The translations under genes were made by a program, and so were the position numbers. The notes below the pieces were generated by a model that ran no database searches, had not been told where the DNA came from, and was given only the letters and a program-made list of their open reading frames with translations. Positions 9,601 to 51,400 of a stretch of DNA of 64,000 nucleotides are shown piece after piece. Positions within the stretch are counted from its first letter, which is position 1; every line of letters starts with the position of its first letter. Source of the stretch: Clytia hemisphaerica. Lineage: Eukaryota > Cnidaria > Hydrozoa > Leptothecata > Clytiidae. The DNA lies in contig CACVBU010000492.1 of assembly GCA_902728285.1 (NCBI GenBank), positions 1,120,787 through 1,184,786 on the forward strand, read 5' to 3'.

Positions 9601-12600
9601 CTCAGAAAAATGCAAAATGCTATCTGGTTGATTTCATTGTTTCCATAAAAGAAGTAGTGTATTATTCATACAGAATATAATGGGGTGGGTGTGGTGATAT
9701 AAATAAACGTGAGAAGATTTCTCTCCACACAAATCATTTCAAAGAAAGCTGTGCACTGTTTCTGTGTGCAAAGTGTTGAATTTGTGAAGCGAAGCAAAAT
9801 GAATTATAACAATTATTGTGGTCCAGGTTACAAACCTACGTATTATCCTGTACCAAGTCACCTTAACGAAATGCCACCAATGGCATCACAACAAATGGTA
9901 TCTTTACAAATGCCGCCGATGCAACCCTTTCCACCTCAGCAAATGGTACCTCCAATGTTTCCACAACAAGTCGTTCCACACCACCAAGCTCCTCAAACAC
10001 AACCTGAACCAAAGAAAATTCGTTTCACCAAAACACAAAAACATATACTAATCACGCAATGGTGCGAAAATTTCAACGAAATTCAATCAAGTCGCTGTAA
10101 CCAGGTTTGGCCGGACATCGTGAAAAAAGTTTCAAAGCATGGACAACCGAAAAATCTAAATCAATGCAAGCAAAAGATATGGGGAATGAAAGACAAATAT
10201 CATAAATGCAAAAAGCTCATGAACGAATCAACTGGTGGAGCCGCTGTTAAAAAGTGTGAATATTTTGATGATATTGACAAAGTGTTATCCGACAGAGATG
10301 TTGAAAATCTACCTGAATTTTTTGAAGTCGGCGCAGGAAACGAGTTAGAGCCTTCTGAGAACTTTGATGTAACCACACCACCAGCAGTTGAGAAAGATGA
10401 TGCGTCGGGCATTGAACCTTGCAGTGCAAGTTCAGCTATCAAGAGAAAACTTATCGAAGAAAACGAGACACAAGATGACTTAGATAGTTCACTAGAATAT
10501 GTGAAACAGTTAGAAACTGACGTGCGTAAACATTCCGCCAAGAAAGTTCCAAAGAAAGAAAAACCGAAAACATTCCAGGAACAGCTTATCGAAATGCAAA
10601 AGGAGCAAATTAAAGTTTTTGAGAGAAGTGAAGAAAACTTTCAAAAATTTCAACTATCAATGCACCAAAAACAGCTTGAGGCTGAAGCCAAAGACAAAGA
10701 AAAAGAAAGAGAGTTTTTCTTACAATTTGGAAAGATATTTGCCGGTAATAAAGACAATAACAACAACAACAAATAACTTTTTTAAGTTCAGAAAAATTCT
10801 TTTGTTAAAAACGGTATTATTACAGTAGTACGCAGTAGTATCTTTTGAAATTTTACATTGACACGAATTGGCACTTGTCACTTCGATCACTTGTCACGGA
10901 CAGTATTCTGGGAGCCCAGATTAGGATTTTTATCATAGTTTTTCTTTTGACATGTCGTTTATTGATTTAAATAGTTGGTTAATGAGATACGAGAAGTATT
11001 TCCATTAGGATTTCGATCATAATTCTGCCGTCTTCTTTGTCTTGACTGTCTCTCTTGTCTCAAAATATTTTCGAGAACACCATCCTCGTCTGTATAAGTT
11101 TCATTGTTCATTTGACAAAAATTGTGTAGAGTGACGCAGGCGATTGTCACAGCAGCGACATTTTCAATCCTATTATCAAGTCGTTTGAGTAAGATTCTCC
11201 ATCGAGCTTTTAAGATTCCAAATGCTCTCTCGACATGAACCCGACCACTCGATAATTTTCGGTTAAAAACACGTTGATCTCTTGTTAACCCTGGTCCGAA
11301 TTGGTGTGGTGTGATTAGCCATGATAGTAAGGGATAGGCACCGTCTCCGAGGACAAGGGGTCTTATTTCTGAATCATCGATTACGTCAATAGGTTTCGTC
11401 AAAATTTCTTGATTTTCGGCCCTTCTAAAGAGTGAGGAGTTTCGAAGGTTTCTAGCGTCGTGACAACTACCTGGAAATCCCGTTGCAACATCTAAAAACA
11501 TTAAATTTGCCCCAACTAAACCTTGTACTGATACTGTGTAGCACTGTTTCCTACTGTAATAGTCAGCTTTCGATTCAACACTGGGAGCAGATATTGGGAT
11601 GTGAGTTCCATCCAAAGCGCCAACTACCTGGGGAAATTCGGTTTGGTAGTTCATCTTAAATTCTTCTATCGCCTTAGCAGTATCTCTTCTTGTTTGAGGA
11701 AATTTGATAAACCTTTGGGAGAGTCTCGTTAGTTCTAAACAAAATTCCTTTGTTATTTGTACTGCCGTTGAGCTTCCAACGGCAAATGTTTTTGCGACGG
11801 TCCTAAAGGAGTTTCCAGTTGCCAGCCTCCATAAAGCAATCGCTACTCTTTTTTCTATGGGTATTGCTCTGCGTAACTGTGTGTCACGTTTTTCTAATCT
11901 TGGCCGAACAAGTGCTACTAACGACAGAAAGGTCTCCCGTGACATTCGAAAATCGTTACGCCAAAAATGATTAAAAATCTGATCTGCCTGCATACGCGAA
12001 AACCAAAACTCTTGTCTGGGGTAAGCCCATAACGAACGTGCTCTACGAACTCTTAATTGTAGCAAAGAAGTACGCATGATGGATGACAAAAAGAATCTTC
12101 TAGTTAACGAGCGATGATGGGATATTGCGTTTTTGAAACAAATTTTGCTAAAACGTCGTTTTTTATGCTTCTTTTGATAGTGCTTGAAAAGGAGCAGAAG
12201 TAGTGCTTTTGATACGGTGTCCATAATGTAAAAGGTCAAAAAGTTTGAATGAGTTTGTTTATTAATTTCCTGGTAAGAGAAAAATAAACTGAAAAACTAA
12301 TAGAAAAAAGCACTATTGAGAAGCTCTATTGTTAAAAACCATTTTAAAATTTTTAAAATTTCATAGTGTGACTACGATGCAATACTTTCTTTATAACTTT
12401 TGCAAAGTTGAAATGTGTATGAGTTTTGAGCAGTTAATGAAAGGAATATTTTTTTTTATTTTCAGGCTAGAAAAAGTAAAAAAAAGTAGAAAATGAAGCC
12501 TAAATTTACACCAAAGATATGTTATACACCACAGAGAGTGAAGACAGGGAGGCTTATAGGGAGGAAGTTGTTGGCTTACATAATATATGTTTACTTTTTC

Positions 12601-27107: not shown

Positions 27108-27341
27108 GTGTGCATTAATTTTTAGTGTAAATTTTGGCGATTTCCTCACTAAGGATTGAAATTTGAATTTTGGCCAAATAACCTACACTAGGAAAATTGA
27201 AGAAATTGGGTGAAAAAGACTGCTTTGCGAAATTTTGTCCACAGGAAAGTTTAAAATTCTCAATTTTGTGAAAAAAGTCCACACAAACATTAATCCACTT
27301 ATTAATTTTCTTTTCCAGGACAAAGAATTGTAATAAGTGAC

Positions 27342-28745
27342 ATGACAACTGGAGATGTGAAAAACAATTTACGAAAACTTAAGACAGAGTTACGCTTGAT
27401 AAAGTATAAAGAGGAAATACCATGGCAACAAATCAATGTTGGATTAACTGAACCTTTATTACCAATATTGCATTATGTCTTTGGTGATTATTCATGTGAA
27501 TTCACCTCTTATTTAGGTGCAAAAGGATATGACTTCTTTTGTAAAAGCGATTTACGATTTATCGAAATAGTGTTTAAGATACTGGTAACAGAATTTAATT
27601 TGAAGCCAATGTTAACAAAACAACAATTCTTTGCTGTAGGCTTTGCTGAGATCAAGGTTATATTTGTGACAAAAATAATATCACTTTGTCGAACAAAAAA
27701 TATGGCTATTTTAGCGAAGTTGAAAAAACCGCGAAAACAGGTTCAAGTGAAACAATCAATATCTTTGGACTGTATTGCACAGAGAGAAAATACCTCTAAA
27801 GTTGATTTTCACATTGAACCAAATGAATGTGAAATACCAATTAAAATTATAAAAGATCCTACCATTCAAGGAAAATGTACTCCAAATGACGTATTAGATC
27901 TTACAACCGTTGATCAAATTTCCGACGATGAGGTTAACAACTTGGTCAACACCGGCTATGATTCTATCAGCACTGTTAGAGATGTTCTTGACTTAAGTGA
28001 AATTAATGGTGATGATAATATTGAAAAATTAATCGATGATGAAAGTCGGTTATTTATTGATAACAATGAAGACATTTGTGGGAATAATTTACCTCGATTC
28101 ACTGTATTGAAAAATGCTTTACCTGAAGTTAGATTGGTTGAGGAAAGCATTGTTAATGAGCTTGATGGTGAAGCTAAAGTGAAAAACATGAACGAGATCA
28201 CTCTTGAGAGTTGTACTCAATGTATAAACAATACAAAGAAAATGAGTGTTATGGAAAATCGTATTTCTTCGCTTGAAAAGAAATTTACAGCATCAGTTAA
28301 ATTGAATAACGAGTTATCTGCAAAAATAATTTTGCTAGAAACTAAAGTGAATTTATTGGAGTCGTCTTCAAGTAAGAGAGCAGAGGAGAAAGATGAATTT
28401 GTGGATTCTACTTCAATGATAAGTGATGAGAAACAGATTACACAACCAACGCTTTATTCGCCATTGAAATATTCAGATGATGATACCATTATGAAAGGAT
28501 TTCGCCCCATTACAATGAAGGATGTCCGAGCAGCACATGGGATTAATTCCGGACAGGTCGATGGTAAAGAGAACCACCCACGTGTTGTTGTGGATCCAGC
28601 AACTGAATTGAAATGTATCTCTACTTCATCGAATAGGAATGTTTCTTTTGATTCGAAAACTAAAGAAACTATTTTTAATGTGGAGAAATATTTTCAAGAT
28701 GCTGACCAATTATTATCGGCTCGATCGAGCGTGGAAAGATTTTGA
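27342..28745 (+). CDS. CEP44: Centrosomal protein CEP44, single coding exon
   Basis: CEP44 is a centriole/spindle-pole protein that binds microtubules and helps convert centrioles to centrosomes. The 467-aa product begins MTTGDVKNNLRKLKTELRLI, and residues ~1-125 carry the conserved N-terminal CEP44 domain (DLRFIEIVFKIL, PMLTKQQFFAVGFAEIKV), alignable by eye with animal CEP44. Residues ~130-290 are acidic and probably disordered. A coiled coil spans ~298-345 (MSVMENRISSLEKKFTASVK), and the tail is low-complexity. The family is ~390 aa in vertebrates. The start is supported by the domain beginning at residue 1. A splice-acceptor-like TTTTCTTTTCCAG (ends 27319) lies 22 bp upstream, so a 5' UTR intron is likely. 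An intronless CDS is unusual for the family: it could be a processed copy that replaced or accompanies the ancestral gene. Confidence 0.88.
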   Translation: MTTGDVKNNLRKLKTELRLIKYKEEIPWQQINVGLTEPLLPILHYVFGDYSCEFTSYLGAKGYDFFCKSDLRFIEIVFKILVTEFNLKPMLTKQQFFAVGFAEIKVIFVTKIISLCRTKNMAILAKLKKPRKQVQVKQSISLDCIAQRENTSKVDFHIEPNECEIPIKIIKDPTIQGKCTPNDVLDLTTVDQISDDEVNNLVNTGYDSISTVRDVLDLSEINGDDNIEKLIDDESRLFIDNNEDICGNNLPRFTVLKNALPEVRLVEESIVNELDGEAKVKNMNEITLESCTQCINNTKKMSVMENRISSLEKKFTASVKLNNELSAKIILLETKVNLLESSSSKRAEEKDEFVDSTSMISDEKQITQPTLYSPLKYSDDDTIMKGFRPITMKDVRAAHGINSGQVDGKENHPRVVVDPATELKCISTSSNRNVSFDSKTKETIFNVEKYFQDADQLLSARSSVERF

Positions 28746-37757: not shown

Positions 37758-38042
37758 GATAAAATTTGGTGGGGATTAAATTTCGCGGAATTCGTAGATT
37801 TGGGTGTCATCTACGAAATTATATCTGAGAAACTAAAAAAAAATATCAAATAAACTTAATGTTTACTGGCATCAAAGAAGCAAACAGTATGCATGATTTG
37901 GCAGTAAAAGGCACAAAACAGTGAAAATATTGTCACCCCAATAGTGCCATATGCAAAGATTAGTCCCAATAAGTCCCCGCGAACTCTTTGAAATTTCGCA
38001 GATGAGCAAACCGCGAAATTTAATCCCCGCAAAAATTTATCC
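37758..38042. mobile_element. MITE with GGGGATTAAATTTCGCGG ends
   Basis: Left TGGTGGGGATTAAATTTCGC is inverted at the right as TTGCGGGGATTAAATTTCGC. The interior has a second short inverted pair around TCTACGAA. The style resembles the other TTCGCG-containing foldbacks of this window. Confidence 0.75.
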
Positions 38043-38459
38043 TATTACAGCGTTTATAGATAAATAGAAAAAACTTCTAGATTAACCCTATTTTTAGCTT
38101 CTGAAAACTTTTTGATAATACTTTGTTTAGATGCCCGTAATGTAGAATTACTAGAAAATACTTTCACTCTTTGGTCACAGAATCACAAGGCTTCAAATCG
38201 TGTTCAGATCTAATTTCTTTCATTTTAGAGTAGTTTTTCGCTCTTTCGCAAGCACTTTTTTAAAATGTGATTTTCAAAGGCATGCCTAGATCGATTGACG
38301 TCGGAGCTTCCAGGAAAGCCTTTCTTGCCTCTATCACTAGATTTAGATGTGTTACAATCTTAAAATACTAAAATATTAAGTGAAATAAATTTTCCACGAT
38401 ATACTAAGCATATTGATATAATATATAATGATAGGGGTTAATGATATTATCTACAAAAC

Positions 38460-38635
38460 GTTTCTCTAAAGGAACTAATTTTCGCGTTTTTGGGTGTCTA
38501 CCGGGAAATGCAATTTTCACTAAAATCCTCAAAAACCCCTAGGAATATGAAAGAATTTCGGCAAAAAGTGGGTGTCAACCGCGAATAAATAAGTTCCGCG
38601 AAAATTAGCTTCCATGAAAAAGTTCCATTGAGGAG
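38460..38635. mobile_element. MITE with AAGGAACTAATTTTCGCG ends
   Basis: AAAGGAACTAATTTTCGCG at the left faces CGCGAAAATTAGCTTCC and AAAAAGTTCCATTGAGGAGA at the right. GGGTGTCTACCG / GGGTGTCAACCG is repeated inside. It is diverged but clearly palindromic. Confidence 0.6.
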
Positions 38636-38913
38636 AAGATTTCTAGAGTTTACAAAATTCTATTCATCTTCGTCATCTTACTAAGATAGAAGTTTTTTTT
38701 GGAAAAATTTTCTAAGTTTTTTTCTAAAATGGTCATGTTTTTATTCTAACGACTCAATAGTATTTAATGAGAATTAGAAGTAAAATGAGCCTCGTGATTC
38801 TTAAAAAAAGCTTCGATTTTGAGTCTTGAAATATTCTTAATTGATTCTTAAATTTTAAAACAGCAAGGACATTCTTTTATTTAATAAATGTTTAAAATAC
38901 ACTCTCTCTCTTT

Positions 38914-40131
38914 ATGTCGGTGTTTTTTACACTTTTGGCGAAAACGTGACATTAAATTTTCTAAAAAACGGTTTTTCTTGATTAATATAAGTTTCAACAA
39001 GGATTTTGGGATGAAATCTTCCAAAAAGGTGGAGCACACAAGCTTAGAGCTTTGGTTTTGGTCCCAGGAGCGAAGAAGGATTCAATATTCCAAAATATTA
39101 GATTTTATGAACTTTGGAATTATGAGAGTTACGTGGCTCTTGGATTTATTCTGATGGTCTCAACATGTTACACGATCTCCATATTTTATGAAACAATGAT
39201 GAAGAGCACTTTTGGATCCGAAATTCCATCCGGAAAACATCTCTGAACTTGAACAATTATAAAAGATACATTTCATCGTTAAAATGGGCTGATTACAATC
39301 TAAAATCAATCAAAAGTCAATTGCACTTTACGTTAAAACATTCTCAGATACCAAAAAGTGCGGTTTCACGAGCGTTTTAGGATTAAAAACTCCAATTTAA
39401 AGCGATTGAAGTGGTGCACCCAACCCCAGCCCCAACTTTTCGCAAAATGGAATTATTAATCCTTTGGGGCTCTATCTGAGGTTATTTTAAGGCATAGACG
39501 TAACGACATATCACGTATAACGTAAAAAATCAGTTTAGAGCCTTGTAGGATATTTCATTCCAGACTAATACGCTCATTTTGGATAAGGCAAAGTATGCTT
39601 CTTTCAATGAAGGATTCCATAATCCTTGGATGCTCTATTCTAGTGGAAAATTTTATTTTCGTGGTCTTAGGGACCCAAACCTTCCAGATAGTTAAATTCG
39701 AACTACTTAATGTCGAATAAACATACTCCAATCCTCAGTTCAAAAAGACTCAAACTCAAAAAGAAATCAGGAATGAGTAATTCCAAACTGCTCCCAGCTG
39801 GAAGATTTTTTATTTAGGAAAAGAAAGTACACAAATGCTCCATCTTGCAAAATTTCAGTTCTAAAGCCACATTATATCAAAAGTTATTGCTCTTGGAATC
39901 CATAATCCATTTTCATTATGGAACCGTTTAATCCTAACGTGCTCCTAACTTTCAAAGGTTATAAGTACTAGCTTAGTTTCTGTAGAAGGCTCGGGTAAAA
40001 AGGAATGGAATCTTCAATCCTTTGCCGATCCCCTGATATCCAATTAAGAAAAGGTGCACTTTGTATTTATTTTTAAAACGTGTTTTAAAAATCTTCACGT
40101 TTTCGCCAAAAGTGTAAAAAACACCGACTTA
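38914..40131. mobile_element. 1.2-kb element with ~43-bp inverted ends
   Basis: GTCGGTGTTTTTTACACTTT plus TGGCGAAAACGTGA (38916-38952) recurs inverted at 40092-40128. The interior has several weak ORFs (for example 39052-39246, VLVPGAKKDSIFQNIRFYEL) with no recognisable domain. The right end abuts TTATAAGCATA repeats of another family. Confidence 0.75.
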
Positions 40132-41110
40132 TAAGCATACGGGAAAATCGGGTCGAGGCTTATCAAACTTAGCGATATTTCATTTCAGCCTCAAGTTATG
40201 CTTAGCATTATGCTTACATTTAGCGATTTTGAACCTAAGCATGCTTATAAACGTTATGCTTATAAAAAAGAGTGTATATTTTTCCCTTGAGTTTTGAACA
40301 AGAAAAAACAAACAAAAAATTACTATTACTAACTGAAAAAAATTATAAAATATTATGTTAGGCTTAGCATTATTCTTGAAAACTATTAAGAATTCTGCAT
40401 TATTGTGTCTAATGATTCTTATAAAAAGAATATGTCTATATGTCATGCACTTTATATTTACAAACTACTATAGTGTATTTATTTACGTTTTACGTTTTCT
40501 TATTTCGTGTTTGATAAAGAGGCTACTTTTGGCGCGGGTATATTTAATTTGGCGGTTTATGAATTTTGTTAATATCAGTGGATGCGAAGACGTAAGGCCT
40601 AGTGCTATCTATCCTGACCCAAGATAATTTTACTTGATATTCAATCGGATATTAAAGTTGGCGCTAGATCTTAATTTTGGGGATCTAGCCTAAAACTGCT
40701 AACCCCACATGATTTGATTCCCGATGAAATTAACACACTAAAGCAAAGGAAGGTTCCTTCATAATTTGTTGAATAATGAAATAATAAAAATCGTTATTAC
40801 ACCCCCTCCTTATAGACCCACGGGGGTCCGTCCCCACTGGAAAAATTGTTCAGAATATAGCCCCCGATAGAATATTAACCTGCAATTTTTATCCCTACTG
40901 AAAATATTCGAATAAACCAATCCTTCCTGCAAAATATTATGCTATTTTTTCCATCGCCAATAATTTTTTTGTCTTGGAAACAAAAGAATTGAGAACCTCA
41001 GCCATAAAAAACATGGAAATATAAATCACCGTCGAGTTTAAGTCCGTTACTTTTATCCACACTGGCTGAAAAAATCCTACCGTGTCTGTGAGAAGGGGGC
41101 GTGTTCTTAA
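40132..41110. other. Non-coding, fragments of TTATAAG-family MITEs
   Basis: GCTTATAAACGTTATGCTTA and TATAAAAAAGAGTGTATA near 40230-40290 are ends of the TACACG family in inverse orientation. The rest, to 41110, shows no gene. Confidence 0.5.
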
Positions 41111-41251
41111 CTAGCTCAGCATGCAACGGTTACTTGCGACTTTATTTTTACATCTTGACAAAATATATTTTGTTTTTAATGTTTCCTCGTGGTTTTTACC
41201 CAATGTATGGATTCTCCTATTCATAACATCTGTATATATAACTCGATCGCT
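41111..41251 (-). pseudogene. Displaced 3' end of the HEPN/NB-ARC/TPR gene (last TPR)
   Basis: On the minus strand this matches one TPR unit of the gene at 45777-48430 (MNRRIHTLGKNHEETLKTK), close in sequence to the unit at 46041-46166. It ends in a short tail and a TAG at 41111-41113. Relative to the intact units it has a 2-nt expansion (TATATATA for TATATA), which puts a TGA at 41221-41223 in the frame coming from upstream. It is separated from the rest of the gene by the 4.5-kb element. As it stands it cannot be translated with the gene unless spliced in some unknown way. Confidence 0.8.
41242..41251. other. Target-site duplication, left copy
   Basis: CTCGATCGCT, identical to 45798-45807 and directly abutting the element. 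The site contains the palindrome CGATCG. The motif also occurs at the same place in each neighbouring TPR unit, so a recombination origin is not fully excluded. Confidence 0.65.
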
Positions 41252-42594
41252 CCCAGCCGGCACACAACGTTTTCAAAACGTTTTTTTTAGGTTTAAATTA
41301 CGTTGTGAAAAAACGCGTTGCCAAAAAACGTTTTAAAAACCTTTTTTCAACGTTGTAGAGAAAACGCGTTATTTCATAACGTTTATAAAACGTTGTTGAA
41401 ACGTTATAATCCATACGTTTTTCAAAGGTTTTGCTAACAACGTTTAATAAACGTTTTTTCTAAACTTGATTTAAACGTGATTTTGATCAACGTTTTTTAA
41501 ACGTCTATAAAACGTTTTTTTGAGACGAAAGTGTAGTGCCCAAGATTTATATTTGAAATATATAAATACATAGAGGTAATAAAAGTTAGATGGAGTAACA
41601 ACTTTTCTGTAATAGCCAGAGAAGTCATAAAACTCTTTAGAAATTTCTTTCAAATCGGCCCTCTTTGATTACCAATCCTTGATAGCAAAAATCAGTCAAG
41701 ATATAGATTATAAGAACTAAAGTAGTCCATCGAAACCTCGTATTTTTAGGTAAAATGCGAATTTTTTTCGAGTAATAATTTCTTTATAGTTTTAAAAGAA
41801 GTTTTTATTTTATCGGGAAACTTTCGAGAGGTAAACTTCTTCAAATTTTGCGAATTCTTTGTTGTTTGTGGAAGGTTCTTTGCTATTAATATCTTTAGAT
41901 CTAAAATAGCAGCTGTCTCAAAATTTTGATAGAATATAGTTGAAAGACTGGCATTAGTAAATATGTAAAAATTGACAAAATTTGCCGAGGATTCCCTGAG
42001 CAGCGAACATTTCAAATTCAATGTTCTGTGCTTATTCTTGCAAGGTTTTCTTATGTTTTATCAACAAAACTGTCATCACACAATGAACAAATTAAAAATG
42101 TAGCGTGATTATATTCAAATTCTCTTCGACTCAAGTATTCCCATGAGCGAAAGCAAAATTAATGGCTTTTTCCCAAAGTAACAAAGCAACAGTTTGCTAT
42201 CAACGATACAATACAATAGAATAGTAGGAGTGGTATCTCCATCTATATTTTTATTACCTCCATGATAAATATAACCTCATCGACTCTCAGCTTTTATCCC
42301 AAGAAAATTTCTGAGACTTTACCTACCTGCTCTGAGATATATAGGATAGATATTCTATATATCTTTTTCTCTTTTACTTTATTGACTTCTCTTAAAGTGT
42401 TAAATATATTTTAATAAAACGCCCACTCCCTGTTTGAATACCTCGTAAGATTGCCCACCCGTAGAATAGAACCTTTTGAAATTCTCTCCGTCACGCCCTT
42501 TCCAAATTACAAACCACGTACCCGCTCCCCGTCCCACTTGCCGCCCCCATCGTCGGCCGAATTAACAATGGAATGGCTTCTTTTCTGGACAGCT

Positions 42595-42632
42595 TTCGAA
42601 CGTTCGAACGTTCAAACGTTCGAATTCGAAAT
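42595..42632. repeat. TTCGAACG palindromic array
   Basis: TTCGAACGTTCGAACGTTCA and the following AACGTTCGAATTCGAA form a nested palindrome of ~38 bp just outside the left arm of the inner foldback. Confidence 0.8.
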
Positions 42633-43277
42633 CACTTGTAGTTCAAAACAAAACAAAGATGTGGCTAGTTCGAAACACGGGTCACGGGTCCGGGTCACGG
42701 ATCCGGGGCACGGGGCACGGGGCACGGGGTGACTGGGCAGCTGAGATCAAAGTAATTCAAACAGAAAATGTTTTAAAAACACTAAAAATTATCGAAAAAA
42801 TCAATTTTAAGGTATTTTATCCACCTATGACTATTTAAAACGCTAAAACCTAACCACGTGCTTTCCACGTGCTTTCGAAGTTTGCGTCGTGTATAATGCA
42901 GACCAGAAAACACCGTAACATATTACATACATATAATAAGCTTATATTATCAATACAAATACACTTTAAGTGTTATATGCATGTTATATGTTATACGTAA
43001 GTAATATACATATTACAATTCCCATCGCCTGAAAAAGCGAGCTTTCTCAAGAAAATGATAGTACGGCTATTGTTAAATCATATCTCATTATATCCCCTCC
43101 ATCACCTTGAGTATGAATATAATTTTAATGGATAATAACGTAGAAATGATGGTATTTTATATATAAATGTGTCAATATTTTCCACCTACCATTATGAATT
43201 TTTAATAAAAATGACGTAATTATACTCATATCTCTAAAACCACTATCTTGCAGCATTTAATCGAGTGTGATTATTTA

Positions 43278-43505
43278 CGTGGGTCCCGTGCCCTCGTGGG
43301 TCCCATGGGTCCCGTGCCCTCGTGGGTTCGTGCCCCCGTGGGTCCAAAAAAAAACCCGTGGGTCCAAAAAAAAAACCCGTGGGTCCAAATAAAAAACCCG
43401 TGGGTCCGAAAAAAAAACCCGTGGGTCCAAAAAAAAAACCTGTGGGTCCAAAAAAAAATCCCGTGGGTCCAAAAAAGAAATCCCGTGGGTCCAAAAAAAA
43501 ACCCC
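43278..43505 (+). repeat. Minisatellite, left arm: (CCCGTGGGTCCAAAAAAAAA)n
   Basis: About nine ~20-21-bp units after three units with GTGCCCTCGTGGGTCC. A-run length varies from unit to unit. All six frames stay open, giving artefactual Trp/Gln/Lys- or Pro-rich ORFs. Confidence 0.95.
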
Positions 43506-44283
43506 GAAAAAAAATCCAACTTCGTGGATTTCATTGGTTGGTTTGGTTCCGGAAAAATAAATGTCTCGAAACATTCTATTGTTTGCTTGTGTGTTTTAAA
43601 CTGCGGGTCGGTTTTAGATATTGTCTGCGGGAGACTGAGTGTTGGAAAGTCTTTTTCTCGAGTTCAAGGTAGGACAAAACAGTCGAATATCAACTCTTTC
43701 AATACCGCCAGAAAGAAAAAGTTTCCGGATTCTAACAATTGACATATGAGAAAGTTTGTTGCAGGGCGATTTCTCACTGTTGAAAAGACTTGCTTCATTT
43801 TTGCTTTAACCGAAAGTAAACTTCATTAACTTTGAAGAGACCCCTAATCAGACCCAAATCAGGCGATCACGCTAAATTTCAAGTTCAATCACTCATCACG
43901 AAAAATGACCAAATTGAAGTTTATCACGCAATTATCGGCAATACATACAGAGCAAAATTTCGTTTAATCACGCATCACGCTCCAAAATTTTGTCAAATCG
44001 TGATCACATTCTAACTTCCAATCACACAATCAAGCCAAAAAAATTCGGAATCGCGATGGCAGACAATATCGAGGGGGGGTTTGTAGGGGTTCGAAATACC
44101 GTTACTGTCTGATTTTAAAATACCGTTTTCCTGTCTCTTTTTTCGTCAAATCCCCCCCCCCCCAATATCTAAAACCGACCTGCAGTTTAAAACACACAAG
44201 CAAACAATAGAATGTTTCGAAAACCGGAACCAAACCAACCAATGAAATCCACGAAGCTGGATTTTTTTTTCGGGGTTTTTTTT

Positions 44284-44541
44284 TGGACCCCCACGGGATT
44301 TCTTTTTTGGACCCACGGGATTTTTTTTTGGACCCACGGGTTTTTTTTTTGGACCCACTGGCTTTTTTTTCGGACCCACGGGTTTTTTTTTGGACCCACG
44401 GGTTTTTTTTCGGACCCACGGGTTTTTTTTTGGACCCACGGGTTTTTTTTTCGGACCCACGGGTTTTTTTTTTGGACCCACGGGGGCACGAACCCACGAG
44501 GGCACGGGACCCACGGGACCCACGAGGGCACGGGACCCACG
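44284..44541 (-). repeat. Minisatellite, right arm, inverted copy
   Basis: The same unit on the other strand (TTTTTTTGGACCCACGGG), about ten copies, ending in GGGCACGGGACCCACG units that mirror the left arm. Confidence 0.95.
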
Positions 44542-45776
44542 TAAATAATCACACTCCATTTAATCGTTTTAAAACATGCCAATCTATATCCAGTCACATG
44601 ATTAACATCCTATTGAGTATGAAAAAACATTTTGCTGTAAATTGGTTCAGAGGCGTTATATTTAATGATTTTGACAATATTTTTGTCATTCAATATCATT
44701 TTGTCAAAATTTGTGGGTGACAATATTATTTAAAAATTTTCATGATAATACTATTCGTATATATATAATTGTTTCAGACATACTATACTAGTAGTATTAG
44801 TACTATTATATGTGTTATGTAGTACGTGTTATGAATTATACGTTATGATATCGTTATATTTTTTCCGGTCTGTAAATTGTATGCCCCGTGACCCGTGACC
44901 CGTAACCCGTGACCCGTGTTTCGAACTAGCCGCAAATAAAGCATAATACTTATACAGTACCAAAAGTTCATAGGCTATAGGCCAAAGACTGAGGCCGAGA
45001 TAATTGAAAATTCCCCAAACTATGAGTGATTATAAACGTTTCATGTTTAGAAGAGGCTTTTTCTTGAAATCCAATAAAAGTTCCAAAATAAATCCAATCT
45101 CCTTTTCCAATTTTTTTGCTGGTAAAAAGAAGGGGAACTCTCACTGTTTTCTTACCAAACATCTACGAATGCCGTCTAAAAACGAGAGTAATTTTTGTCC
45201 CTACAAGCTGCGCACGGCAGCGCAGCGAACGGCTCCAGAATTTGGCTAATAGCAATCATACTGGAAACGTTTGGAATGATCATCACGAAGATGCCAGAAA
45301 GGAAGCGTGGAAGAGAAAGAACATCAAATTTTTGATTTCATTACGTTCAATTTATACTGATTGTCATACCCAGAAAATTATATAGAAAATAGCATTCAAA
45401 GAAAATTCAAATGTGTCTATGGTCTTTCTCATAATAGTGCAATGAATAGGAATTATTTTGGCAAAGGACGTCTTAGAGACGTGTTAAAACTAATCTATAA
45501 TAACTTTTAAAGACGTTTTTAAGTCGTCTCAGAAACGTACCATACAGAAATTAATAAAATTAAGACGTCTCGGAAACGTCCTACTAGAGACGTCCATAAT
45601 TCGTTCCAAAAAGACGTATTTCAAGTGGCTAGAAGAAAACGTAGAAACAACGTTTTTTAAACGTCTTGCAAAAACGTTTGAAAAACATTTTTTTGACATT
45701 GTGAAAAAACGTTGTAAAGTGCGACAAATACAACCTGAAAAAAACGTTTTCAAACGTTTTTTTTTTTTAACGTTTT

Positions 45777-48430
45777 TTAAACGTCTTTTGCCGGCTGCTC
45801 GATCGCTTTGATGTAATCTTTGTAGCAATGGGCAAGCCGATATTTTGTGTCTAATGTTTTATCGTGGTTATCGCCCAATGTATGGATTCTCCTATTCATA
45901 ACATCTGTAAATAACTCGATCGCTTTGATGTAATCGTTCTGCTTCCTGTAGCACTCGGCAAGCATATATTTTGTGTGTAATGTTTTATCGTGGTTATCGC
46001 CCAACGTATGGATTCTCCTGTTCATAACATCTGTATATAACTCGATCGCTTTGATGTAATCTTTCTGCATCCTGTAGCACTCGGCAAGCAAACATTTTGT
46101 TTTTAATGTTTCCTCGTGGTTTTTACCCAATGTATGGATTTCTCTATTCATAACATCTGTATATAACGCAATGGCTTTTAAATAGTTTTTGATTTTTGAA
46201 TATTTATTAGCTAAGTTGCATTTTATTTTTAGTGTAGTTTCATCGTTTTCACCAAAAACTTGATTGTTACTCTGTATTACTTTTTCACCCAATGAAATCG
46301 CTTTTTCGTGATCACCCATGTTTGAATAATCATTCATCAGGTTACTCAATGTAATTAGTGTTGATTCATCATATTCACCATAAAGTTCAGATTGTTTCTT
46401 GAAAACTTCTTCATGCATTTCCAAGCTTTTCTTGTGGTTGCCAATCAGTTGGTAAAATGTTGCTAGGTTGTTTTTCACCACTAGAAAGTGGTGCATATTT
46501 ATGGTGTCCACTTTAATCGATGATAATGTTTCTTCTAGTGTATTGATAGCGTCTCTGAACCTTTGCAAATCTTTTAAAATTAATGCTTGGAGATGTTTAA
46601 TGTGGAAACAGGGAAAATCGTTTGAAAATTCACATTTTGTAATAATTCTGTCAATGATTGTCAAAGCAGCTTCAGACTTTTGTTTTACTCTCGCGATGTC
46701 TCTTATTTCACCACCGTAATCGATCATCTCTTCATAAAACCTTTCGTCATCAACTTCAGTCGTTAAGATTTCAAAGAAATGATTAAAATATTCTTTTGCA
46801 AAGTCAACATGATGAATAGAACGAGCTTTTTGTTCTTCGTCAATTTCTTTAAAGAAAGCTTTTAAACACTTGATAAGATAACCGATTTCATTAGTTTTAC
46901 TCAACGTAAGGACAGTTGCTTGAATCAACGAATGGATGGTCACGATTATTCCATTGTCAGTGTTTCGTTTATTTATAATCGATGCACTTTCTAACTGGTG
47001 AAGGGCAGAATCAAGATCAATTTTGGATGATTCTCCAGCATCAAGTATACGGACAACATTTATTGAAATTTCTTCACTTCTCAAATAGCACATTCGGTTC
47101 AGAATCTCAATAGCCAGTTTAGAGTCTTCATCCTGCTCTGAGAGACGTTTAAGATTGATCTCAATAGCAGCAATGGTTGAAACGCCATGATGGGTTTTCG
47201 ATATTGGTTTCTGGAGGACGTTGGCTGTTTCCGATTTCAACAATCCGATAAATTCTTCAGAGGTCATTGTTGTATTGTTCAAAGCTGATATGACCTGCTG
47301 AAGACCGAGGGGATGTCCCTGAATCAAGTCCACGATGTCCTTGATTTGTTGGTTGGTTAGATTAGCTCTACACTGTTCAGTTAATAGTGTTTTTGATTCT
47401 ACTACAGTTAAACTTTCCACTGCGATTTTCTCAAAATCTGGAGTAGGAAAGTCTTTCTTTTGTGACGTAATCAAAGCTGTGTATTTGTTGTATGGCGGAA
47501 GAAAATTTTTGATGACGTTAAATTCCCATGCATCATCAAAAACAAATAAAGGTTCGATGTCGTCAAGGTAACCATAAACGCTGGCGATGATGGATGGCAT
47601 ACTCTTTATCTTTTGATGCTGGTCTCGGATTTCTAAATTGAAGTGTTCAGCAAGTTTGATAAACGCTTTATTAAGTGAATCCTGGCTTTCACTTTTTAAC
47701 CATATCACATTCTCGTTAAAGTGTTTTCCGTAAACCTCTACGTATCGTCTAACGATTTCCGATTTTCCTGTTCCAGCAGCTGCGTGCAAGACGACATGGT
47801 AAGCCTTGGTGTTGTTTTGTTTGATTAGTTGGTCAATCTGTTTCAAGATGTCCTCTCTACCGGTAAAGCTAGCGACGGCCTTGGTGAAGCCATATCTTAA
47901 TGGTGAAAGAAGATCATTAATCTCCTGTTGTGGTACCCCTAAAGCGATCAGTGACGGTACGATAAATTGATAAGCTTCTTGGTAGAACTTATTCTCCATA
48001 TACATGGTTGAATGTTGACCGATGTTTCTGCCAATACTCATTCTTTTGCAATGTGCTCCACGTTTAATGTCGGTGTTGTTTGGCCGTTTCTGCCATCCGG
48101 TTAAAGGTTGATCCACATTGGGACAGAAATTAATGATTAGGAAGTCCAATAAAGTACTATCGAAAGTATCAGAATAAGTTTCGTCGGTGTTTTGTGGAAG
48201 TAATTTGAAGTACCATTGTGCTGATATTTTATTCTGAGAACGCATTTGTTTCAATTGTGCTTTACGTTTTTTGAATTCTTGATATAGGAGTTTGGGGTCT
48301 CGTGGGAAAACTTCGTGAAAGAGGTCTCTCTTGACAACCTCACATTTATCAATGAGCACTCTCATTTTTCGAGCGTTCTTTCGGTTCTCTCCTGTCCTTA
48401 TCGACTTGAGCGGTGCCGTTGTTGGCGCAG
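45777..48430 (-). CDS. HEPN-NB-ARC-TPR protein, main exon
   Basis: After the acceptor TTTTCTATTATAG (48431-48443) the frame is open from 48430; the first internal ATG is at 48363-48365 (862 aa from there; numbering follows that Met). HEPN (~1-145): SAQWYFKLLPQNTDETYSDT, FDSTLLDFLIINFC, GWQKRP and the catalytic-type R113-N-I-G-Q-H118. NB-ARC (~155-370): FTGREDILKQI, Walker A AAAGTGKSE (K201, first Gly replaced by Ala), Walker B LFVFDDAW (D277, D278), TSQ in place of TTR at sensor 1, and GHPLGLQQ. A HSLIQ motif at 478-482 ends the winged-helix region. TPRs span ~585-856; the last three units are near-identical in DNA. The final codons Q-P-A-K-D-V-stop are supplied by the inserted element. The last unit also lacks 9 nt. 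Confidence 0.88.
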
Positions 48431-51400
48431 CTATAATAGAAAAATCAATAGATTAATATTAGCAGCTAGCAGCCCTGTTAGCTAAACTAGGCATCACGGC
48501 TTTCTTTCTATGCTGTAAAATGTTTATTCAGTTTTAATTAAAACTGAATAAACAATTGAAAGAGTTAGTTTTTTTGATCATGTGATTAGAAAATAGACCA
48601 ATCCCAAGAGGAGATTTTGGTAACGTGATCAAAAAGTATGCAAACCGCAACTTGTCTTTTGTTTGTAACAAAAGAAAATTGAACAAAAAACTAAAACAAT
48701 GCATAATGACTATGGTCAATGAAAGTATAAGTTAAATGGGCGGTATAAATGGGCGGGTTTAACGTATAGATTAAGCTGTAGTCTTTCTGTTACGCCATGA
48801 AGGCTTCCCAAGCCTTAATGAAACTTGATTTTCAGTTAAATGGAGTGTTTTGATTACCGCCCTCCTCCTCCCTACATATATCAGTTCTTTAACGGTTGCA
48901 GGTGAACTCTGAAGTTTTTGTGTATCTAGTATACCTCGTGTACCTAGGTCGGTGATAATTTTTCCCCGAAAACTACTGCCAAAACATATGTATCAAAAGA
49001 TGTAGCTACAATCATGGATAAAACATTGGAGACAAAGGAGAATTTCCCTGCGAAAATTTAAACACCACAAATGATTTTAAAGCGCATTAAAGTACGTTTG
49101 GAAAGTAGAGTTTTAAGTCTGAGTTTTAACATGAGACTTAAGCCTCAGGATCTTAGGATTTAAACGCTCAAATTTGCTCCAGAAAGGCTTGGAATATAAC
49201 CTAGAAGCCACCGAACCCCTCCAGAATCGAAATATTTGAGGAAAGAAAGTGAGAGTGCTAATATAGCAATTCTCGCCCGAAATTTAATTTCTGAAAAACG
49301 TCAAAATACACTAAAATCTCAAAATGTTTCGACCATGATTTATCAACACACTCCCTAGATTCAAAAATACCTTAAGGGAACTTATTTTGGTGGGAACTAA
49401 TTTTGGCGAATTTGACGAATTTAGGCAAAATTCGCCAAAATTAGTTCCCGCCAAAATTAAATATTTTGCTCACTCGCCAAAATAAGTTCCTGCCAAAATT
49501 AAATTTTTTGTTCCCTTGCCTAAATAACCCCTGAAATTCATCAAAATTGCTCAAAATAAGGCAAAATAGAACAGATTTACGCTGTCATTCGCCAAAATTA
49601 GTTCCCGCCAAAATTAAAAAAATTCACTATTCGCCAAAATAAGTTCCCGCCAAAATTAAAATATTTTAAGATTTTCGCCGCTCGCCAAAATTAGTTCCCG
49701 CGAAAATAAGTTCCCTTAAGGTAAGTTAAATCAGTTTTTATTAGCCAGTACCTCAGCAGAAAGCTGTATATTTTTAAAAAGTAAGCCTTTCAAGTCAACT
49801 TTTGACGCAAATTTGTAAGTTTTTGCTGAAGTGTGGATACGAAATAAGTTGAGGCAAATTAGAAATTAGAAATTCTTTACAATCATTGATTAAGTATCAG
49901 AACGGAAATTTTTGCTATTTTCTATGAAAAGTTTTCCGAAGATGATTGGATTTCATTGAACTGAAAATCAAGTCAAGTCAATCCTATCAATAGAAAATAT
50001 TTGAAAATGGGCAAAATGGACGCACTATGGAGGGCAGTCTTAAAATCATCCACTTAAAGGGATAACCACCAAATATTTTTAAGAAAAAGCATTCTGAATA
50101 GAATATATGACGATTTAAAATCTAAACCTAACTATCTTGACTTTGAAAAGTAAAATTTGTAAAATTTCTGCTAAGAACTACGAAAAGAATCTTTGGTTGA
50201 ATTTCTTTTTTTTCTTCCCTTAATTCCATTCATTTTCGCGCGCCTTTTATTTTCGCGCCTCTAATTTTCGCGATTTTAATGTTAGCACAGCTCGTAAAAT
50301 AGATTCTTTGCACATCCTTTAATTTTCGCGCATCTTGCAATTTCTGGGATATTTTCTGAGTGTTTTTGACGATTTAAATGCTAGATTTTGCATATTTAAT
50401 TATGAACCGAATCGAGATCCCATTCTATTAAAGGCTCTGACCATGAAAATTGATGTCATTATTTGGACATGAAAGTTATGTTTTAGGTTCTTTAACACTT
50501 TTAACAAAGAATTGCCTTTATAAATTGATTTTTAATCAAATCCTTTAAGAGTAATTATTAAGAATTTAATTGCAGAAATGACGCTATGGACTTGAAAAAG
50601 ACGTTGATAATAAAATTTTGCATTACCTTTTTTTATAAGTTCTAATGGGTAATTAGCCTTTTTGTTTCAAAGTTTTTTCAAACTGTCCTCAAAGAATTGA
50701 ACGATTTTAAATTTTTCGGAAAAGTTTTCTAAATTAATGCATCAAAAGTTATCAAGAAATTGGTCAAAAAGTACTATTTTCAAGATTTTGAGTATTTGAG
50801 GCAAATAAGGATTTTAGAAATTTTCCGAAAATCTATTTTTAGTTCGATAAAAAATACACATTTACCGCAAAAAAATTTTCAAAATGTTTTTTCTTAGTTT
50901 TTCAAAGTTGAAATAATATTTTTCACAAAAGTCTTCATTTTCTTCTTCATCAAACTTTTTCATTGTTATTTTTAAATTTTCAGACTAGGATAATTGGGCT
51001 AACAGAAATATCCCTCGAGGAATTCCTAAGAGATTTCTATTGAAACAATCCCAATGCATCGCTCTTTTAGAAAAATAAAAAATTCCGATAAGATCTATCA
51101 AGAATACGTGCGTGGTCGAGGGACCCACGTGGAAAATTTCCCAAAGGGGTATTCAGAATAACTCGATTTGGCAATGACTTGGGAAATCACTCAAAAGAGC
51201 CAAAAAACCAAAAACAGATGCAAGCTAACATGCATGGAAATAATGTTTAATAAGTAGACTTGCTAACTAGGGCGTGGCTTTTGCGTGGTCATGGAAAATT
51301 CCCTAATTCTTTGTTAAGGTTTTAACCATTTTCAACAGAGAAGTTTTAAACTGCTCTGCAGTCTTGGGAAATGACTCGAAAGAAACCAAATAAAAAAATA

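What the first reader, a model, noticed from the sequence alone, without database searches (positions are those of the whole stretch)
45777..48430. NLR-like protein with an intact HEPN ribonuclease motif at its N-terminus
The ORF joins a DZIP3-type HEPN domain, an NB-ARC ATPase with Walker A (K201) and Walker B (DD277-278), and a TPR array. The HEPN part keeps R113-N-I-G-Q-H118, the Rx4H signature of HEPN RNases. HEPN domains are metal-independent RNases in RNase L, Ire1 and many bacterial defence systems; NB-ARC/TPR proteins are oligomerising sensors. Together they suggest a sensor whose assembly switches on RNA cleavage, an animal analogue of abortive-infection systems. The architecture is seen directly; the function is inference.
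Basis: partly seen in the sequence, partly recalled or inferred. Interest (0 to 1): 0.8.

Follow-up and report, generated by a model that had tools for sequence, protein, structure and literature searches.

The report
Truncated HEPN–NB-ARC–TPR immune-type gene
This gene, probably from an invertebrate animal, joins a predicted RNA-cutting domain to an immune-sensor-like switch and repeat array; the kind is already described in corals and molluscs, and this particular copy has lost its tail to a mobile element.

Summary
The architecture is real. The minus-strand ORF 45777-48365 (862 aa from the first ATG, not 898) holds a DZIP3-type HEPN domain, an NB-ARC-like STAND NTPase with intact Walker A/B, and a kinesin-light-chain-like TPR array. 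The unnamed 417-Mb genome holds at least 115 HEPN_DZIP3 matches. Arg and His with exactly four residues between are kept in 99 of 106 copies aligned over the motif and in 6 of the 9 others aligned singly; residues in between vary. This fits a selected active site. The full-length model matches STAND/TPR, Apaf-1 and CED-4 structures; the HEPN model matched no solved structure. RNase activity is untested. Two corrections: HEPN_DZIP3 on NACHT/NB-ARC proteins is already in print for corals and molluscs; and this copy is interrupted by a ~4.5 kb repeated element that supplies its last six codons and stop. A paralogue with a 1092-codon open frame lies 24.6 kb away. Best reading: a truncated member of a known, expanded family whose intact members probably couple NTPase-driven assembly to HEPN pairing and RNA cleavage.

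The parts
45777..48365 (-). ORF, 862 aa from first ATG: HEPN_DZIP3 - NB-ARC - TPR; C-terminus truncated
48430..48432 (-). putative 3' splice site (AG at 48431-48432, exon from 48430); first 5' exon not identified
   Evidence: read by eye; homology to the neighbouring paralogue continues into this leader
47907..48293 (-). HEPN_DZIP3 domain, residues 25-153
   Evidence: Pfam PF18738, 59.5 bits, cut-off 27; AlphaFold2 all-helical, mean pLDDT 90.8
48012..48029 (-). R113-N-I-G-Q-H118, the Rx4H motif
   Evidence: conserved in the family
47235..47840 (-). NB-ARC/STAND NTPase, residues 176-377
   Evidence: Pfam PF00931, 36.7 bits, cut-off 23.5; fold match of the full model to Apaf-1 and CED-4
47760..47774 (-). 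Walker A core G198-T-G-K201-S
   Evidence: G198, G200, K201 invariant in 18 aligned copies
47532..47549 (-). Walker B, LFVFDD, residues 273-278
   Evidence: D277 invariant in 18 aligned copies
45798..46745 (-). TPR array, helix pairs from about residue 541 to 856
   Evidence: 126-bp DNA tandem repeat 45821-46178
45777..45797 (-). last six codons (QPAKDV) and stop, supplied by the inserted element
   Evidence: paralogue homology ends at 45798
41252..45797 (.). inserted repeated element, inverted ends CAGCCGGCA..., about 4.5 kb (left end uncertain by two bases, 41252 or 41254)
   Evidence: both ends recur elsewhere in the genome
41242..41251 (.). direct repeat CTCGATCGCT, left flank of the insert
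45798..45807 (.). direct repeat CTCGATCGCT, right flank of the insert
41150..41251 (-). TPR remnant beyond the insert
   Evidence: tblastn of the neighbour's tail, 66.7% over 30 aa

Best explanation
The locus is a C-terminally truncated member of a lineage-expanded family of HEPN-NB-ARC-TPR proteins. Intact members most likely work as STAND switches: the TPR array senses a ligand or partner, nucleotide exchange at the NB-ARC lets protomers assemble, and assembly brings N-terminal HEPN domains together so that Arg and His of two protomers form a metal-independent RNase site. The outcome would be RNA cleavage, host or viral. SHOWN here: domains, motifs, family-wide conservation of R/N/H and of the nucleotide-binding residues, a higher dN/dS in the TPRs than in the other domains among three copies, and interruption of this copy. 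INFERRED: oligomerisation, RNase activity, immune role, ligand, substrate.
For: Profile hits above cut-off for all three domains. R and H with exactly four residues between in 99 of 106 copies aligned over the motif, out of 115 matches; in 28 of 32 clusters below 70% identity and 15 of 19 below 50%, from 98 of the 115. On 33 representatives R113, H118 and N114 rank 9th, 10th and 16th most conserved of 117 columns, while 115, 116 and 117 rank 103rd, 55th and 110th. Six copies that lack about 21 residues of the domain still keep RNxxQH. G198, G200, K201, D277, H351-P352-L353 and H478-S479 are invariant in 18 chosen copies. Full-length model mean pLDDT 84.4; best PDB matches a TPR-bearing STAND protein (6mfv, E 3.5e-15), then Apaf-1 and CED-4. 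HEPN lies upstream on the same strand within 20 kb of 37 of 42 NB-ARC and 33 of 45 NACHT matches. Pairwise dN/dS among three close copies: HEPN 0.10-0.37, NB-ARC 0.18-0.30, TPR 0.63-0.80.
Against: No RNase activity of this domain type appeared in anything I read. The HEPN model had no match at E <= 0.001 in PDB or BFVD, so the HEPN fold rests on sequence profiles and on the cited comparative work. Matches of the 56 A1 members to other HEPN Pfam families are weak (RiboL-PSP 0.0087, Swt1 0.027, Apea 0.047) and little or no better than to unrelated families in the same table such as DREV 0.017 and Annexin 0.019. Seven of 106 aligned copies lack R or H. No expression data. This copy is interrupted. 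The neighbour with the long open frame has no NB-ARC match at E <= 0.01. TPR dN/dS comes from three sequences and repeat exchange can inflate it.
Confidence: 0.5

Rival explanations
1. The DZIP3-type HEPN in these proteins is a non-catalytic RNA-binding or adaptor domain: R/N/H bind RNA or hold a dimer, and the proteins signal by recruiting partners.
For: The coral paper calls the domain RNA-binding (PMC10236652, passage). No fold match to a solved HEPN RNase at E <= 0.001. One of 56 members weakly matches an effector-associated domain, EAD11, E 0.0087.
Against: R-N-x3-H is kept while two of the three residues between are among the most variable of the domain, and it is kept in copies that have lost other conserved parts of the domain; that pattern is more typical of catalysis.
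Confidence: 0.25
2. This particular copy is a decaying gene; its open N-terminal part is a leftover of recent duplication and insertion. (About this copy only; not exclusive with the best explanation.)
For: Element insertion in the TPR array with a 10-bp direct repeat, and in tblastn only a short TPR remnant beyond the insert. The C232 copy carries several stops, and the C604 copy ends early with further TPRs in a separate frame that carries a stop: the subfamily turns over.
Against: The remaining 856 codons are open, and dN/dS of HEPN and NB-ARC against the close paralogues is 0.10-0.37; but with dS about 0.16-0.17 a recent loss would leave little trace.
Confidence: 0.5
3. A sensor or decoy without enzymatic output, such as a truncated regulator that poisons assemblies of the intact neighbour.
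For: HEPN and NB-ARC are kept while the TPR tail is lost; a paralogue with a 1092-codon open frame lies 24.6 kb away.
Against: Nothing shows expression or interaction.
Confidence: 0.08

Closest known systems
NACHT/NB-ARC proteins with N-terminal DZIP3-like HEPN in corals (five species compared; PMC10236652, passages seen)
   Same: N-terminal DZIP3-like HEPN in high number among NACHT/NB-ARC proteins; TPRs reported as the usual C-terminal repeats of the NB-ARC ones
   Different: The passages do not state the exact HEPN-NB-ARC-TPR triple; the copy here is truncated, its species and expression unknown
[quoted passage not shown]
   Same: Lineage expansion; Rx4-6H in 194 of 202, Rx4H commonest, N after R; HEPN at the N-terminus of more than 50 NACHT proteins; RNase proposed
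   Different: There the NTPase is NACHT; this copy is scored as NB-ARC
DZIP3/hRUL138 family in the HEPN superfamily survey (PMC3710099, passages seen)
   Same: Motif 'mostly conserved'; fusions to TPR, NACHT, DEATH, LRR, CARD; lineage expansions in animals and Capsaspora
   Different: A computational survey; no member assayed in the passages read
STAND protein with TPR sensor (PDB 6mfv) and Apaf-1/CED-4
   Same: NTPase and, for 6mfv, TPR layout (best fold matches)
   Different: No HEPN named in the entries; Apaf-1 and CED-4 carry a CARD instead (recalled)
Bacterial HEPN-STAND proteins mentioned in PMC3710099
   Same: N-terminal HEPN joined to a STAND NTPase
   Different: My one scan of prokaryotic genomes, with two short peptide patterns, found only a 24% match over query residues 166-330, the NTPase part (L157)

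Membership tests
DZIP3/hRUL138-like HEPN (Pfam PF18738) | profile score above the curated cut-off | tested here: met
   59.5 bits against 27
DZIP3/hRUL138-like HEPN (Pfam PF18738) | Rx4-6H motif | tested here: met
   R113-N-I-G-Q-H118, family-conserved
HEPN RNase superfamily | helical HEPN fold similar to solved members | tested here: inconclusive
   all-helical, pLDDT 90.8, but no PDB match at E <= 0.001; the second aligner was not available
HEPN RNase superfamily | composite active site across a dimer | not testable with these tools
   no two-chain prediction; no model coordinates in the Python box
HEPN RNase superfamily | metal-independent RNase activity | not testable with these tools
   needs biochemistry
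STAND / NB-ARC NTPase | Walker A and Walker B | tested here: met
   G198, G200, K201, D277 invariant in 18 copies; NB-ARC 36.7 bits against 23.5; Apaf-1/CED-4 fold match. In the neighbour L011 NB-ARC does not appear at E <= 0.01, only AAA and nSTAND profiles do
STAND / NB-ARC NTPase | nucleotide-driven oligomerisation | not testable with these tools
   needs biochemistry
NLR in the strict sense (NACHT plus LRR) | NACHT domain and leucine-rich repeats | tested here: not met
   neither among the 25 best families shown (30 matched at E <= 1; 5 not shown); NB-ARC and TPR instead. NLR-like only
Bacterial abortive-infection / anti-phage systems | match to a known defence family | tested here: not met
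   no PADLOC match for the full protein at E <= 0.1; of 56 HEPN members 2 match PDC-M03B (best 0.0066) and 1 DpdH (0.017) at E <= 1. Analogy only

The most novel reading that the evidence does not exclude
Intact members of this expanded HEPN-NB-ARC-TPR family are assembly-activated ribonucleases: an animal resistosome-like complex whose effector is an RNase rather than a death-fold adaptor, NADase or pore, with catalysis being what selection keeps (R-N-x3-H survives even where about 21 residues of the domain are gone).
Probability: 0.35. Interest if true: 0.7.

Novelty: new member of a known kind. Interest (0 to 1): 0.3.

Why it matters
If the RNase prediction holds, corals, molluscs and similar animals carry dozens of sensors with a built-in RNA-cutting output, a route to antiviral defence parallel to RNase L and to bacterial HEPN effectors. 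The nearby open paralogue and the clear R/H prediction make this directly testable. The locus itself adds a clean example of mobile-element turnover in such a gene.

Tried and rejected
Chance motif: rejected, since the R.{4,6}H pattern search gave one hit in 862 aa, at the family position. Pseudogene throughout: rejected for the HEPN and NB-ARC parts, which are open and show dN/dS of 0.10-0.37; kept as a rival for the copy as a whole. The C-terminal region as a natural end or a simple intron: rejected, because homology stops exactly at a 10-bp direct repeat followed by inverted ends and both ends recur in the genome: 40 candidates scored in each search (of 231 and 66), giving 75 matches for the left end and 62 for the right, weaker reverse-strand ones included. 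On several contigs the two ends lie about 2 kb apart in the same orientation (for example C419 and C633, read by eye), so this copy of the element is longer than those. Attempts to place the organism by GFP and molluscan haemocyanin gave nothing and are not informative, since nothing rang in the controls either; the species is unknown, and 'animal' is an inference from the family's reported distribution (PMC3710099) and the genome. Comparison of the HEPN model with PDB and BFVD gave nothing at E <= 0.001. The HEPN profile against PDB chains gave five matches at E 0.14-0.8, none named HEPN. The prokaryote scan gave one Chloroflexi match, to the NTPase part only, and the viral scan none; two short peptide patterns were used in each, so this is weak evidence of absence.

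Selection in alignments: A1 holds 56 of the 63 representatives; I left out seven (L070, L113, L132, L137, L140, L144, L149), four of which lack R and/or H (L070, L132, L140, L144), so its 'invariant' columns, the HEPN fold built on it and the scans lean towards motif-bearing members, and I take no conservation count from it. A2 holds 18 copies chosen from the better matches; more distant ones were left out. The counts without that choice are those. One search set aside 5 loci with a stop inside the domain and 12 with under 95 aligned residues (98 of 115 kept). In one search, 9 of 115 copies were not aligned over the motif; one search found R and H in 6 of these 9, the other 3 unresolved. The 115 are rows of one search; some may be two haplotypes of one gene.

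Full report
WHAT IS THERE. The minus strand of 45777-48365 is an open frame of 862 codons from its first ATG; stop to stop it is 891. Pfam scores HEPN_DZIP3 (residues 25-153), NB-ARC (176-377) and TPR_12 (five stretches), each above its curated cut-off. Among solved structures the TPRs are nearest in sequence to engineered TPR proteins and kinesin light chains.

IS THE MOTIF MORE THAN CHANCE? The genome has 417,433,876 bases in 951 contigs and shows 115 HEPN_DZIP3 matches. I fetched all 115 and aligned them iteratively. Of 115, 106 align over the motif; 99 of the 106 have R and H exactly four apart, and 7 do not: D/E twice, R/L twice, M/H, V/E and H/V once each. Six of the other nine, aligned one by one, lack about 21 residues just before the motif helix but still read RNxxQH at the right place; three were unresolved. 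Near-identical copies do not explain this: 28 of 32 clusters below 70% identity and 15 of 19 below 50% keep both residues (from 98 of the 115). On 33 representatives R113, H118 and N114 rank 9th, 10th and 16th most conserved of 117 columns, against 103rd, 55th and 110th for the three residues between.

STRUCTURE. AlphaFold2 gives a confident all-helical HEPN (mean pLDDT 90.8), with R113 in the helix of residues 102-117 and H118 just after it. Foldseek found no PDB or BFVD match at E <= 0.001 for it, so the HEPN fold is supported here by profile and motif and not by structure comparison. The full protein (mean pLDDT 84.4) best matches a STAND protein with a TPR sensor (6mfv, E 3.5e-15), then Apaf-1 and CED-4; plant resistosome NLRs appear further down. 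G198, G200, K201, D277, H351-P352-L353 and H478-S479 are invariant in 18 chosen copies; I read the last, 'IHSL', as the counterpart of the MHD motif of NB-ARC proteins, from memory.

FAMILY CONTEXT. HEPN matches lie upstream on the same strand within 20 kb of 37 of 42 NB-ARC matches (22 within 1.5 kb) and of 33 of 45 NACHT matches (3 within 1.5 kb); a rough random expectation is 0.003 per match. Close paralogues: C604 (89%), the same contig 24.6 kb away (86%, 1092-codon open frame), C232 (broken by stops), and two on C796 (45%). Pairwise dN/dS among the three closest is 0.10-0.37 for HEPN, 0.18-0.30 for NB-ARC and 0.63-0.80 for TPR: effector and switch are held while the presumed sensor changes, though with three sequences and repeat exchange this is suggestive only.

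THE COPY IS INTERRUPTED. Homology to the neighbour and to the C604 copy stops at 45798. Beyond it lies about 4.5 kb (41252-45797) with inverted ends CAGCCGGCA..., flanked by CTCGATCGCT at 41242-41251 and 45798-45807. Both ends recur in the genome (40 candidates scored in each search). A short TPR remnant survives at 41150-41251. The last six codons and the stop of the 862-aa frame therefore come from the element. The neighbour runs about 200 residues longer (1064 against 862 from the same ATG). Whether this copy is expressed is unknown.

HOW IT MOST LIKELY WORKS. For intact members: TPR sensing, nucleotide exchange, assembly, HEPN pairing, RNA cleavage. The first three follow from established knowledge of STAND proteins; HEPN pairing and cleavage follow from HEPN RNases such as RNase L and Csm6 (recalled) and from the conserved motif. 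None of these steps was tested here.

WHAT IS KNOWN. PMC3710099 (passages) lists DZIP3/hRUL138 HEPN with a mostly conserved motif and fusions to TPR, NACHT, DEATH and LRR among others, with expansions in Nematostella, the oyster and Capsaspora. PMC8260672 (passages) found it the commonest non-LRR partner of NACHT in nine of 15 cnidarians. PMC9646362 (passages) found Rx4-6H in 194 of 202 pearl oyster proteins, Rx4H in 131, and proposed RNase activity. PMC10236652 (passages) reports N-terminal DZIP3-like HEPN in high number in coral NACHT/NB-ARC proteins, with TPRs the usual partner of NB-ARC; it does not, in those passages, spell out all three domains in one protein. PMC12165695 (passages) notes structural similarity of Cas13an HEPN domains to DZIP3, Swt1 and AbiD/F, which supports the superfamily link that my own fold search did not. 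PMC9334734, PMC8195603 and PMC12314368 were also read in passages. My searches listed no biochemical assay of a DZIP3-type HEPN; I judged this from the titles and abstract openings shown, which are capped lists of open-access papers, and from the passages named.

VERDICT. Observation confirmed, interpretation partly supported, kind already known, this copy truncated. Interest 0.3; the untested RNase mechanism would be worth about 0.7 if shown.

Noticed in passing
window 9703-12296: A Myb/SANT-like ORF (9703-10776, +) beside a DDE_Tnp_4 transposase ORF (10959-12296, -): looks like a PIF/Harbinger-type transposon pair (type recalled).
   Followed up: partly
window 27306-28745: An ORF with a CEP44 centrosomal domain (PF15007, 124.6 bits): an ordinary eukaryotic gene.
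   Followed up: no
window 43255-44564: Two arrays of a 21-bp repeat (43335-43506 and 44273-44484) lying as inverted arms of about 200 bp inside the inserted element; they make repetitive ORFs on both strands.
   Followed up: partly
L145, L146, L147, L151, L152, L153: A subfamily on C834, C197 and C84 lacks about 21 residues of the HEPN domain, conserved W91 included, yet keeps RNxxQH.
   Followed up: partly
L070, L071, L100, L132, L133, L140, L144: HEPN_DZIP3 copies without R or without H (D/E twice, M/H, R/L twice, V/E, H/V): candidate inactive members.
   Followed up: no
contigs C793 and C913 of G000: Clusters of 9 and 8 HEPN matches with 10 and 6 NB-ARC matches in separate open frames, some a few kb downstream; the two contigs may be two haplotypes of one cluster.
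   Followed up: no
window 37881-50180: Flanks of the gene match the flanks of the neighbour 24.6 kb away in pieces (82-96% identity), pointing to a tandem duplication later broken up by insertions.
   Followed up: partly
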